A stretch of 64,000 nt of DNA from the IMG/VR virus record IMGVR_UViG_3300042863_003045, positions 38,657 through 102,656 of that record, one strand, 5' to 3'. Below, in pieces: positions 11,398-17,517 of this stretch. The notes under the pieces are model-generated. The model saw nothing but the letters and a program-made list of their open reading frames with translations, ran no database searches and was not told the origin of the DNA. Each line of letters starts with the position of its first letter. The first letter of the stretch is position 1. A program made the translations under genes and the position numbers. The stretch comes from a virus.

Positions 11398-12999
11398 TCA
11401 GATATTTATAAATGATTTCAAATTATTCCAAAGCAATTCCCAAATAATATTATCTTGATCATATTTAATTCTAATTAGATTAATAAAATTTTCCTCACAA
11501 TAATTATTTTTTATTTCATCATTTATTTTATATTTTTCAAAAGCTTCAACTCCACCAAAAAAAGAAATTGGTTGAAAGTGTTGAATACCATCAAATTCTA
11601 TACAGGTTCGTAAACTTTCGATATAAAAATCGAACTTAAGGTAAGATTTATTACGACATTCTGGAAAAATATGCTCTCTTATATAAGAGATTTTATATTT
11701 TTCAAGAAATTTACTTATTTCTCTCTCACCCTTCGAATCACTACACATTCTACAACCACTTCCGCTTAGATGTGATCCCGGCAATTGATGAAAGTGTCCG
11801 TGTAGTGGACACTTTATAGTTATTTTTGCCAAACTATTCACATAAAATGATTTTTCATAATTATATTTATTATTATGTATTTTATTTGATTGTTCAATAA
11901 ATTCTTCTAAAGTTAGTGAATTTCTTAACTCAGGTGCATATATCAAATGGTTATGTGGTAATTGCTCATATATTTTATTATTGTAAATGATTTTAATAGG
12001 AAATTTGCATGAAATAAAATTGGATAATGAATAATCATATTTATCTCCCCATTTTCTTTTCGATTTAATTAAGAAAATTTCTTGATTTAAGAAACCTTCT
12101 ACTGGATATTTTAAATGTGATTTTGGTAATTGTTCATAGACTATACCATCATGAAGTATTTTCACTTTAGTTTTTGAATTTTTGTATTCAGTTAAAGAAT
12201 AATCATATTTATCTCCCCATTTTAATTTTGCATCCATTATAAATTCCTCCGTGCTATATTTCGGTATGTATATTCTGTCTCTATATTTATCACCACATTT
12301 TTTACAACCCATTCCTCTTAAATGTGAGTTAGCAACTTGGAGAAATTCACCATGTTCTATACAGATAATAATAACTTTCTCATTAGAATAAGTATAATTT
12401 GTTTTTGAGTAATCATACTTTGAGTTATGAATTTTATTTGACCTTCTAATGAACTCAAGAGTATCTACTTTGTCTTTTTTTCTTTCTGGTGCATATATCA
12501 AGTGATTCGATGGAGTTTGTTCATAAACTATACCATTGAATATAATTTCAACCTTCTCATTACAATTTTTAAATTTAACGAGTGAATAATCATACTTATC
12601 TTTCCATTTATCTTTAGATTTTTTTATAAAATACTCTAAATTCATATTTGATTCAACAGATTGTCCTTGAAGGTGTGATGAAGAAGTTTGTTCAAAAACA
12701 ATATCATCATAAATTATTTTTATTTTTTTATGAGCACCTTCATATTTAACCAATGAGTAATCATATTTATCTCCCCAAATACTATATGCTTCTTTTAAAA
12801 AATTTTCTGTTGTCTTAATGGGAGTGTTTTTCTCAGGACACCTACCCATTAGATGTTTTACCACACGCTGCTTATATAGTATATCATCAAATACAACATC
12901 AATTATATCATTTGATTTTATAATATCATTCAAATTTAAATAAGAGTATTTAAATCCATGCGTATTTCTTGCTTTTTGGAGGAAATCATATTTATTCAT
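11398..12999 (-). CDS. DUF723-repeat homing-endonuclease-like protein
   Basis: 533 residues. At least seven degenerate repeats of ~60 residues of the form F...K..WGDKYDYSLVKY...K..I...G..YEQ.P..HL, two of them with Cys pairs (GCKKCGDKY; GCRMCSDSK). This is the DUF723 type associated with phage endonucleases. The C-terminal ~110 residues (ISKFLEKYKISYIREHIF, then KFDFYIESLRTCIEFDGIQH) form a PD-(D/E)xK/VSR-like nuclease domain with candidate residues D, E and H. Likely a free-standing homing endonuclease beside uvsX; the DUF723 repeats probably bind DNA. Confidence 0.8.
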   Translation of the reverse strand: MNKYDFLQKARNTHGFKYSYLNLNDIIKSNDIIDVVFDDILYKQRVVKHLMGRCPEKNTPIKTTENFLKEAYSIWGDKYDYSLVKYEGAHKKIKIIYDDIVFEQTSSSHLQGQSVESNMNLEYFIKKSKDKWKDKYDYSLVKFKNCNEKVEIIFNGIVYEQTPSNHLIYAPERKKDKVDTLEFIRRSNKIHNSKYDYSKTNYTYSNEKVIIICIEHGEFLQVANSHLRGMGCKKCGDKYRDRIYIPKYSTEEFIMDAKLKWGDKYDYSLTEYKNSKTKVKILHDGIVYEQLPKSHLKYPVEGFLNQEIFLIKSKRKWGDKYDYSLSNFISCKFPIKIIYNNKIYEQLPHNHLIYAPELRNSLTLEEFIEQSNKIHNNKYNYEKSFYVNSLAKITIKCPLHGHFHQLPGSHLSGSGCRMCSDSKGEREISKFLEKYKISYIREHIFPECRNKSYLKFDFYIESLRTCIEFDGIQHFQPISFFGGVEAFEKYKINDEIKNNYCEENFINLIRIKYDQDNIIWELLWNNLKSFINI

Positions 13000-13124: not shown

Positions 13125-14351
13125 ATGGCTAAAACACAAACAAAAGAAGTAAAAAGGTTTGAATTCTCAAAAGTTGGATCGATTTTGGATAACATCTCTA
13201 AGTCAATTCCAATTCAAATTGAAAAAGAAATAAAAGAGAAAAAGTTTATATCAACAGGCGTCTACATAGTAGATGCTGCAATGTCTGGTAGATTATTAAA
13301 TGGTGGTGTTGCAACTAACCGTATTAGTGTTTTTGCAGGAGAAAGTGGCTCAGGAAAATCATTTTTAGCATACTCTGTGGCTAAAAATGCTCAGAAATCT
13401 GGATACTCAATAATTTATATTGATACAGAACAAGCTGTCGATCTAGAAGATTTGCCAAAATTCGGAGTAAGTAACGACTTAGATAAATTTAGATTGGTTA
13501 GATCAAATAAAGTTGAAGATATTAATATAACATTAACTCAATTAGTAGATGAATTAAAAGAACAAAAATTAGCAGGATATGAATTGCCTAAATTAATGAT
13601 TGTACTTGACTCATTAGGACAAATGGCTTCTAATAAAGAAAAAGCTGACTTATTAAAAGGTGAAATTAAACAAGATATGACCAAAGCAAAAGCAATTGGT
13701 TCTATGTTTCGATCTATTAATAATGATCTTGGATACTTAGATATACCTATGATTGTGTGTAACCATACATACTTGACGATGGATCTTTTCCCACAAGCAG
13801 TCATGAAAGGAGGTTTATCACTTTTATATTCAGCTTCAGTTATTGGATTTATGACCAAATCAAAATTGAAAACTGGTGAAGAAGATGATATGGATTTAGG
13901 ACAATCAGGTATTACTGTTTTATTTAAAACACAAAAAAATCGTTTAGCAAAACCTAAAAAAATAAGATTTGATATATCTTTTGCAACTGGCATGAATTCC
14001 TTTACTGGATTAGATGCCTTCTGTCGTCCGGAATATTATGATAAAATAGGAATTGCAAAGGGTAAAGAAGAAGTAGATAAATCAACTGGTGAGATAACTT
14101 TTAAACCAGGAGGAAACCGTTGGTTTGTATCACATTTGGGAAAATCAGTAACGACTAAACAATTATTTACGCAAGAAGTATTTACATCAGAAGTTTTAAA
14201 AAAAATGGAACCAATAGTAAATGATTATTTCAGATTCAAATCGATTGAAGAAGTTGAAGAAGTTGAGAAAAATTTCAATTCAATTATTGAAGATGATGAA
14301 ACAACTGATTATGATGGTGATTCATTTGACGCAGAAGATTTATTTGAATAA
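13125..14351 (+). CDS. uvsX: UvsX/RecA-type recombinase
   Basis: 408 residues. The Walker A motif GESGSGKSF is at ~residues 69-77, with the RecA-fold IIYIDTEQAVD strand near residues 92-105 and the Walker B-like LMIVLDSLGQM at ~155-165. KTQKNRLAKPKK fits the L2/DNA-binding region. The C-terminus is acidic (YDGDSFDAEDLFE), as in T4 UvsX. Catalyses strand exchange in recombination-dependent replication and repair. It presumably works with the UvsY-like protein at 21099. A short gene follows two bases after the stop. Confidence 0.92.
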   Translation: MAKTQTKEVKRFEFSKVGSILDNISKSIPIQIEKEIKEKKFISTGVYIVDAAMSGRLLNGGVATNRISVFAGESGSGKSFLAYSVAKNAQKSGYSIIYIDTEQAVDLEDLPKFGVSNDLDKFRLVRSNKVEDINITLTQLVDELKEQKLAGYELPKLMIVLDSLGQMASNKEKADLLKGEIKQDMTKAKAIGSMFRSINNDLGYLDIPMIVCNHTYLTMDLFPQAVMKGGLSLLYSASVIGFMTKSKLKTGEEDDMDLGQSGITVLFKTQKNRLAKPKKIRFDISFATGMNSFTGLDAFCRPEYYDKIGIAKGKEEVDKSTGEITFKPGGNRWFVSHLGKSVTTKQLFTQEVFTSEVLKKMEPIVNDYFRFKSIEEVEEVEKNFNSIIEDDETTDYDGDSFDAEDLFE

Positions 14352-14851: not shown

Positions 14852-14859
14852 TATATTTG
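14852..14859 (+). promoter_or_regulatory. Bacteroidota-type -7 element TATATTTG
   Basis: Perfect match to TAnnTTTG, ending 4 bases before the ATG at 14864. Confidence 0.6.
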
Positions 14860-14863
14860 TGAT

Positions 14864-15460
14864 ATGAGAATAGAAACACAAAACATATTTTTCATTTCAG
14901 ATCTGCACATAGGCCATTCCAATGTAATAAAATTTGACGAAAAAGATCACCTAAGTTGAATACAATATCATCCTCACCAACAACAGAGTTCCACCTCTCA
15001 ATTAATTCAGAGTGCATCTCATTAACGTCTTTGAATGGATTTAAAAACTGCAAAATGGTTTGTCAGTCAGTTGAATGGCAAAATATACCATATCATGGGG
15101 AACCATGATAAAATGAGAGATATGGTTGAACTTGGAAGATTTGAAAAGATTTTTGGAGATTCAACTGGACTTGGTGGAGCTACAATACAAGTTCAAGATT
15201 CTGATTCAAACAGAGGTTATCAAGATATTGTAATGTGTCATTATCCTATTCTTTCTTGGAACAAATCACATCACTCTTCCTGGCATCTTCATGGACACAC
15301 CCATCATTCTCTGAGTAAGAATCCTGATATGAAATGGTTCTATGAGAGGAAAGTTCTTGATATGGGTTGTAACGGTTGGGATTATACACCAGTATCTTAT
15401 CTTCAAGTAAAAGAGATAATGAAGGAGAGAGAAATTAAATCAGTAGATCATCATTCATGA
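14864..15460 (+). pseudogene. Metallophosphoesterase gene disrupted by an internal inversion
   Basis: The 5' part reads MRIETQNIFFISDLHIGHSN (metal motif DxH) and then stops at 14959. The 3' part (from about 15035) reads GNHDK, then CHYPIL, then HGHTHH: the remaining calcineurin-type phosphoesterase motifs. Both parts are in the same frame, 171 bases apart. The missing middle, including NLGD (the GD motif), is present in the intervening DNA but on the minus strand: it reads NPFKDVNEMHSELIERWNS followed by VVGEDDIVFNLGDL. Turning 14942-15041 around gives one uninterrupted frame of ~198 codons with all motifs in order (SDLH, NLGD, GNHD, CHYP, GHTH). As it stands the product is broken. The gene has a host-type promoter element 4 bases upstream. 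The intact enzyme would be a small phage Ser/Thr-phosphatase-like or nucleotide phosphoesterase. Confidence 0.9.
14942..15041 (-). other. ~100-bp inverted segment inside the metallophosphoesterase gene
   Basis: Read on the minus strand it encodes the central part of the enzyme in the frame that joins both flanks. The ends are approximate; only short A/T tracts match at the junctions (left GAAAAAGATC, right TTTAAAAAC), and I see no long flanking inverted repeat. Confidence 0.85.
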
Positions 15461-16611: not shown

Positions 16612-17517
16612 ATGAATATCTATTATGTATATGCTTATTTAGATCCAAGAAATCCAGGAAAGTTCAAATATGAGGACATTGAATTTGATTATGAGCCATT
16701 TTATATAGGAAAAGGAAAAAATTCAAGAATGATAAGACATTTGGATCCTAATAATGAACACAATCAACTAAAGAAAAATAAGATAAAAAAAATAATTGGT
16801 AGTGGATTGATCCCTATAATAATTAAGATAAAAGAAGAAATTTCAAATAGTGATGCCTTAAATTTAGAAATAAAATTAATAAATATAATAGGAAGAAAAA
16901 TAAGAAATAGTGGACCTCTTTTAAATTTTTCAAAAGGAGGAGAAACGTTTCTTGGATATAAACACAAAGAAGATTTTAAAAAAAAGTTAAATAAAAGAGT
17001 TATAAAATACGATTTAGAAGGCAATAAATTAGAAGAATATGAATCTGTAAAAGAAGCTGGTGAAAAAAATAATATCCTACCTCAAACAATAAGCAGTTTT
17101 TGTAGTGGATCAATTAAAATATCTAAAGACAATTTTATTTTTTTATATCATAACGAAAAGTTTGAAAAAAGAGAAAGAAATAAAAAGCAATATGTAGTAG
17201 AACGAATAGATTATAATAATAGTATAGTAGAATATGATTCTCTTACAGATGCTGCAATAAAAAATAATGCAAACCTATCAAAAATAAATAGTGTTTGTAT
17301 GGGGAAAAGATTCCACACATCTGGATATCTATGGAGATATAAATGGCATACAGATAAACTTAAATTCGATGAAATAATAAATAGTAATTTTAAAAAATAT
17401 ATTGATTTAATGGATTCTGAAATAGAATTTGAAGGAAATATGTATAAAAATATACTTCATTTAGTAAAAGAAAAAGGATTGAGAATAAACAATATAATTA
17501 AAATGATAAATAGATAA
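16612..17517 (+). CDS. GIY-YIG homing endonuclease (SegA-like)
   Basis: 301 residues. The N-terminal GIY-YIG nuclease domain shows YYVYAYLDP (~4-12) and FYIGKGKNSRM (~31-41), a conserved Glu around 87 (LNLEIKLI), and NFSKGGE. The C-terminal half has two NUMOD1-like DNA-binding repeats (KYDLEGNKLEEYESVKEAG; RIDYNNSIVEYDSLTDAA) and a sequence ending in GYLWRYK. Typical free-standing phage homing endonuclease. It overlaps the next gene by one base. Confidence 0.88.
   Translation: MNIYYVYAYLDPRNPGKFKYEDIEFDYEPFYIGKGKNSRMIRHLDPNNEHNQLKKNKIKKIIGSGLIPIIIKIKEEISNSDALNLEIKLINIIGRKIRNSGPLLNFSKGGETFLGYKHKEDFKKKLNKRVIKYDLEGNKLEEYESVKEAGEKNNILPQTISSFCSGSIKISKDNFIFLYHNEKFEKRERNKKQYVVERIDYNNSIVEYDSLTDAAIKNNANLSKINSVCMGKRFHTSGYLWRYKWHTDKLKFDEIINSNFKKYIDLMDSEIEFEGNMYKNILHLVKEKGLRINNIIKMINR

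What the first reader, a model, noticed from the sequence alone, without database searches (positions are those of the whole stretch)
14864..15460. Metallophosphoesterase gene with a precise ~100-bp internal inversion
The N- and C-terminal parts are in the same frame, and the missing middle, carrying the GD motif, is present but reversed. Flipping 14942-15041 restores a single frame with all five phosphoesterase motifs in the correct order. This is either a natural inversion (on/off switch or fresh mutation) or an assembly error. No long inverted repeats flank it, which argues against a classical invertase switch.
Basis: seen in the sequence. Interest (0 to 1): 0.85.

Follow-up and report, generated by a model that had tools for sequence, protein, structure and literature searches.

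The report
Huge-phage gene broken by small inversion
In what is probably a huge bacteriophage, a 99-base stretch inside a metal-dependent phosphoesterase gene lies backwards, which breaks the gene; the same break appears in four separately named metagenome contigs, so it is probably a real, recent DNA-copying accident and not a reversible switch or an assembly slip.

Summary
A calcineurin-like metallophosphoesterase gene (PHROG 547) at 14864-15460 carries its middle (residues 28-60 of the closest intact relative, with the GD motif) on the opposite strand at 14940-15038. N part, reversed middle and C part each match independently. Two refinements matter. First, three further IMG/VR contigs from three other metagenome accessions carry the identical inversion, one with 3 SNVs elsewhere, so a one-off assembly error is unlikely. 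Second, the locus is 15 nt shorter between conserved flanks than the closest intact relative and lacks an arginine invariant in eight aligned relatives; a clean flip does not restore the relatives' gene. There is no exact inverted repeat above 5 nt at the breakpoints, no resolvase or tyrosine recombinase in the 102.7-kb record, no contig in the other orientation, and no inversion in the other MPE loci found. Best reading: a natural, recent, irreversible micro-inversion with small loss, most likely a replication template switch at an A-tract, which inactivated the gene. It is a new instance of a known mutation class, of modest interest.

The parts
14852..14859 (+). TATATTTG, a Bacteroidota-type -7 promoter element (TAnnTTTG) 12 nt before the ATG of the phosphoesterase gene
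   Evidence: Same -12 position in many stand-alone relatives of both MPE clades; reading it as a promoter is inference.
14864..14941 (+). N-terminal part of the metallophosphoesterase gene (residues 1-26, SDLHIGH motif), right orientation
   Evidence: Aligns with L060 residues 1-26; 9 synonymous and 4 non-synonymous codon differences.
14940..15038 (-). Inverted middle part (33 codons, residues 28-60, GD motif)
   Evidence: tblastn with L060 on the minus strand; PHROG 547 profile positions 49-83; dN 0.15 / dS 1.46 against L060 in the minus-strand frame.
14940..14944 (+). AAAAA tract at the left junction, readable both as the end of the N part and as the complement of the CTTTTT that ends the middle; candidate 3-5 nt microhomology
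   Evidence: that it mediated the event is inference.
15038..15460 (+). C-terminal part (DLKTAKW...GNHD...HGHTHH), right orientation; open from an ATG at 15035 that lies in the inverted sequence (141 aa)
   Evidence: PHROG 547 profile positions 90-210, E 2e-24; ORF 15035-15460.

Best explanation
The gene is a recently inactivated phage metallophosphoesterase. In an ancestor with an intact gene, DNA synthesis crossing it switched at an A/T tract from its template to the complementary strand about 100 nt away, copied 99 nt backwards, and switched back, skipping a few bases. This left a 99-nt inversion with a net loss of about 15 nt. The product is a 31-residue N-terminal stub and, at most, a 141-residue C-terminal fragment that lacks the first two metal-binding motifs (DxH and GD), so the enzyme should be dead. 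The event is natural and irreversible, and it is present in four contigs. Shown: the inversion, its recurrence in identical form, the base deficit relative to relatives, and the lack of recombination sites. Inferred: the template-switch mechanism, loss of function, and the recent date.
For: Three pieces of one gene, the middle on the other strand, by independent queries. Identical inversion in contigs from three further accessions: 100% over 9.1 and 12.0 kb, and 3 SNVs outside the gene in 13.2 kb for the third. Between residues 26 and 64 the window has 96 nt against 111 in L060; Arg27, invariant in eight aligned relatives, and residues 61-63 are missing. A-tract at the left junction; template-switch sites in ape genomes are enriched for poly(dA:dT), and copied fragments reach 128 nt (PMC7954356). 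No exact inverted repeat above 5 nt at the breakpoints. All three pieces still show purifying selection against L060, so the break is younger than that divergence.
Against: No intact relative closer than 78% amino-acid identity was found, so the exact ancestral bases are inferred, and part of the 15-nt difference could be older length variation (several relatives are 1 codon shorter than L060 there). At 99 nt the copied fragment is long for the class (median 12 nt in apes). A microhomology of 3-5 A's in AT-rich DNA is weak evidence. The definite human-chimpanzee micro-inversions were all flanked by inverted repeats of at least 3 nt (PMC8755829); none stands out here.
Confidence: 0.72

Rival explanations
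1. Assembly or library artefact, such as an inverted chimera from amplification, with no such phage genome in nature.
For: Only metagenome contigs are available and no raw reads could be mapped. Whether the four assemblies come from independent libraries could not be checked.
Against: Same breakpoints to the base in contigs from three further metagenome accessions, one with 3 SNVs elsewhere. No contig shows the other orientation. The deficit of bases relative to relatives is not what a merely mis-oriented assembly block would give.
Confidence: 0.1
2. A programmed, reversible on/off switch (intragenic inverton) moved by a site-specific recombinase.
For: The block sits inside a gene, carries a catalytic motif, and flipping it gives an open frame.
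Against: No exact inverted repeat above 5 nt at the breakpoints. No serine or tyrosine recombinase family hit in the 102.7-kb record, though this is probably a fragment of a larger genome. The flipped frame is 5 codons short and lacks an invariant Arg. Only one orientation is seen in four contigs, and no other MPE locus is inverted.
Confidence: 0.06
3. Double-strand breakage at or in the block, with the fragment rejoined backwards by end joining or copied backwards by microhomology-mediated break-induced replication, with end trimming.
For: Accounts equally well for a small loss at the junctions and for little microhomology; break-induced replication has been proposed for micro-inversions (PMC8755829).
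Against: End joining needs two breaks 99 nt apart. The A-tract at the left junction fits a template switch slightly better. The final sequence does not separate these routes well.
Confidence: 0.12

Closest known systems
Short-range template-switch mutations (four-point model; PMC7954356)
   Same: A short reverse-complement block copied locally, a net length change, an A/T-tract at one switch point; order of points 1-3-2-4 (inversion with flanking loss).
   Different: 99 nt is near the top of the ape range (median 12, maximum 128); here it is in a phage and destroys a gene.
Human-chimpanzee micro-inversions (PMC8755829)
   Same: Small inversion inside otherwise collinear DNA.
   Different: Those are 17-33 nt, mostly pure inversions, with flanking inverted repeats; this one is longer, lost bases and has no evident repeats.
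Intragenic invertons / invertase-driven phase variation
   Same: Inverted block inside a coding sequence.
   Different: No inverted repeats, no recombinase found, one orientation only, bases lost.
PHROG 547 phage phosphoesterases / Pfam Metallophos; nearest solved chain by sequence 1xm7 (aq_1665)
   Same: The three pieces carry the family's motifs in the right order once the middle is read on the other strand.
   Different: The gene is broken in this phage.

Membership tests
Calcineurin-like metallophosphoesterase, PHROG 547 | Profile match along the gene | tested here: met
   In pieces: minus-strand ORF at profile 49-83, plus-strand ORF at 90-210; intact relative L060 at 27-211, and Pfam Metallophos above cut-off.
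Calcineurin-like metallophosphoesterase, PHROG 547 | Motifs DxH, GD, GNHD, H, GHxH in one reading frame | tested here: not met
   All five are present, but GD is on the opposite strand and the frame has three stops. The gene is a pseudogene of the family, not a working member.
Template-switch micro-inversion | Reverse-complement block from the same locus, flanks collinear with relatives | tested here: met
Template-switch micro-inversion | Microhomology at the switch points | tested here: inconclusive
   3-5 A's at the left junction, 1 base at the right; the ancestral bases are inferred.
Intragenic inverton | Inverted repeats at the two breakpoints | tested here: not met
   No exact match above 5 nt at the breakpoints; a 7-nt pair at 14913/15079 lies outside and would invert a different block.
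Intragenic inverton | Cognate recombinase in the genome | tested here: inconclusive
   No PF00239 or PF00589 hit in the 102.7-kb record, which is probably only part of the genome.
Intragenic inverton | Both orientations in the population | tested here: inconclusive
   One orientation in all four contigs; reads were not available.

The most novel reading that the evidence does not exclude
A reversible intragenic switch in a huge phage that works without inverted repeats, with the off state dominant in every sampled population.
Probability: 0.03. Interest if true: 0.85.

Novelty: new member of a known kind. Interest (0 to 1): 0.33.

Why it matters
It is a clean example of a gene-breaking micro-inversion in a (probably huge) phage that recurs identically in several assemblies. 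It shows that such events can persist in phage populations, and that a broken gene in a metagenome can be a true mutation and not an assembly error. A scan of aligned relatives found no other case, so such events seem rare here.

Tried and rejected
A paralogue that could replace the gene: none in the 102.7-kb record, but the genome is probably incomplete. Recurrent inversion at the same gene in relatives: none among 101 MPE loci, duplicates included, other than this phage's own. Other micro-inversions among the RecA-region relatives: the only further candidate, L030/L047, is a palindromic terminator-like repeat. An 8-nt repeat, TTGAATGG at 15031-15038 and 15071-15078, which would have been inverted in the ancestor: judged likely chance, and its second copy is not at a breakpoint. 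A TAnnTTTG promoter as a genome-wide signal: 1 of 104 long ORFs, no enrichment. Literature searches for intragenic inversion with long reads gave nothing usable.

Full report
The window is bases 38657-102656 of a 102,656-base virus record of IMG/VR. Its UvsX/RecA-like gene at 13125-14351 is most similar among annotated phage records to uncultured phages of 634-642 kb, which a paper on marine megaphages places among the largest known phage genomes (PMC9723777). The record is therefore probably a fragment of a huge phage; this is inference.

Observation. On the plus strand, 14864-15460 reads as the start of a metallophosphoesterase, then three stops, then the rest of the enzyme in the same frame. 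The missing middle is on the minus strand. The core of the block is residues 28-60 of L060, window 15038-14940, 99 nt. This is far beyond chance.

Breakpoints. Beside L060, the N part is alignable to GAC GAA (and possibly AAA), the middle from CCA (Pro28) to CTT TTT (Leu59-Phe60), and the C part from GAT (Asp64). Between residues 26 and 64 the window has 96 nt and L060 has 111. Arg27 of the RPF motif, invariant in eight aligned relatives, and residues 61-63 are absent. A conservative recombinase would not lose bases.

Is it real? With the RecA-like protein as bait, three further contigs from three other metagenome accessions cover the site and are identical there; two are identical over their whole 9.1 and 12.0 kb overlap, and the third differs by 3 bases in 13.2 kb, all outside the gene. 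An exact search with 26 nt from inside the block, on both strands, finds only these three contigs. Library independence could not be checked, so an artefact stays possible but unlikely.

Is it a switch? There is no exact inverted repeat longer than 5 nt at the breakpoints, no resolvase or tyrosine recombinase hit in the record, and no contig in the other orientation. Of 101 MPE loci examined, duplicates included, only this phage's own contigs are inverted. A scan of pairwise alignments among the RecA-region relatives, about 3 Mb summed over pairs, finds no other micro-inversion.

Mechanism. A template switch explains a block copied backwards from the same locus with small losses. At the left junction the A-run can be read as both the end of the N part and the complement of the CTTTTT that ends the middle, a 3-5 nt microhomology; the right junction shares one base. 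Poly(dA:dT) enrichment and copied fragments up to 128 nt are reported for such events in apes (PMC7954356). Break repair with trimming is a rival that the final sequence cannot exclude (PMC8755829).

Consequence and age. The remaining 141-aa ORF lacks the DxH and GD metal-binding motifs, so loss of activity is expected but untested. Codon differences from L060 show strong purifying selection in the N part (dN 0.08, dS 1.72) and in the inverted middle read on its own strand (dN 0.15, dS 1.46); in the C part 49 of 79 changed codons are synonymous and dS could not be estimated. The break is therefore younger than the split from L060. No second copy of the gene was found in the record. A sister strain, 98.7% identical up to window 14840, has a different gene where this one begins, so the position is variable.

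Verdict. A genuine, probably irreversible micro-inversion that inactivated a phage phosphoesterase; a new instance of a known mutation class.

Noticed in passing
window 14852-14859; upstream regions of MPE genes in many loci: TAnnTTTG, the Bacteroidota-type -7 element, precedes the ATG in 25 of 77 distinct MPE upstream regions, mostly at exactly -12, in both MPE clades. This suggests a Bacteroidota host and nearly leaderless messages.
   Followed up: partly
window 14840; L005 from 4105, L006 from 7716: A sister strain 98.7% identical up to this point carries a different gene (433-aa open-ended ORF on the minus strand) where the phosphoesterase gene lies in the window.
   Followed up: partly
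L008, L009, L011, L018, L019, L020, L024, L026-L031, L033-L035, L050: A second MPE clade, about 30% identical, lies near the RecA-like gene, mostly upstream and in reverse orientation, in many relatives; no second MPE was found in this record.
   Followed up: partly
window 11398-12999 and 16612-17517: A 533-aa ORF built of repeated units (KWGDKYDYS type) and a 301-aa ORF whose start looks like a GIY-YIG endonuclease (YVYAYLDPRNPG...FYIGKG), by eye only; both may be mobile elements.
   Followed up: no
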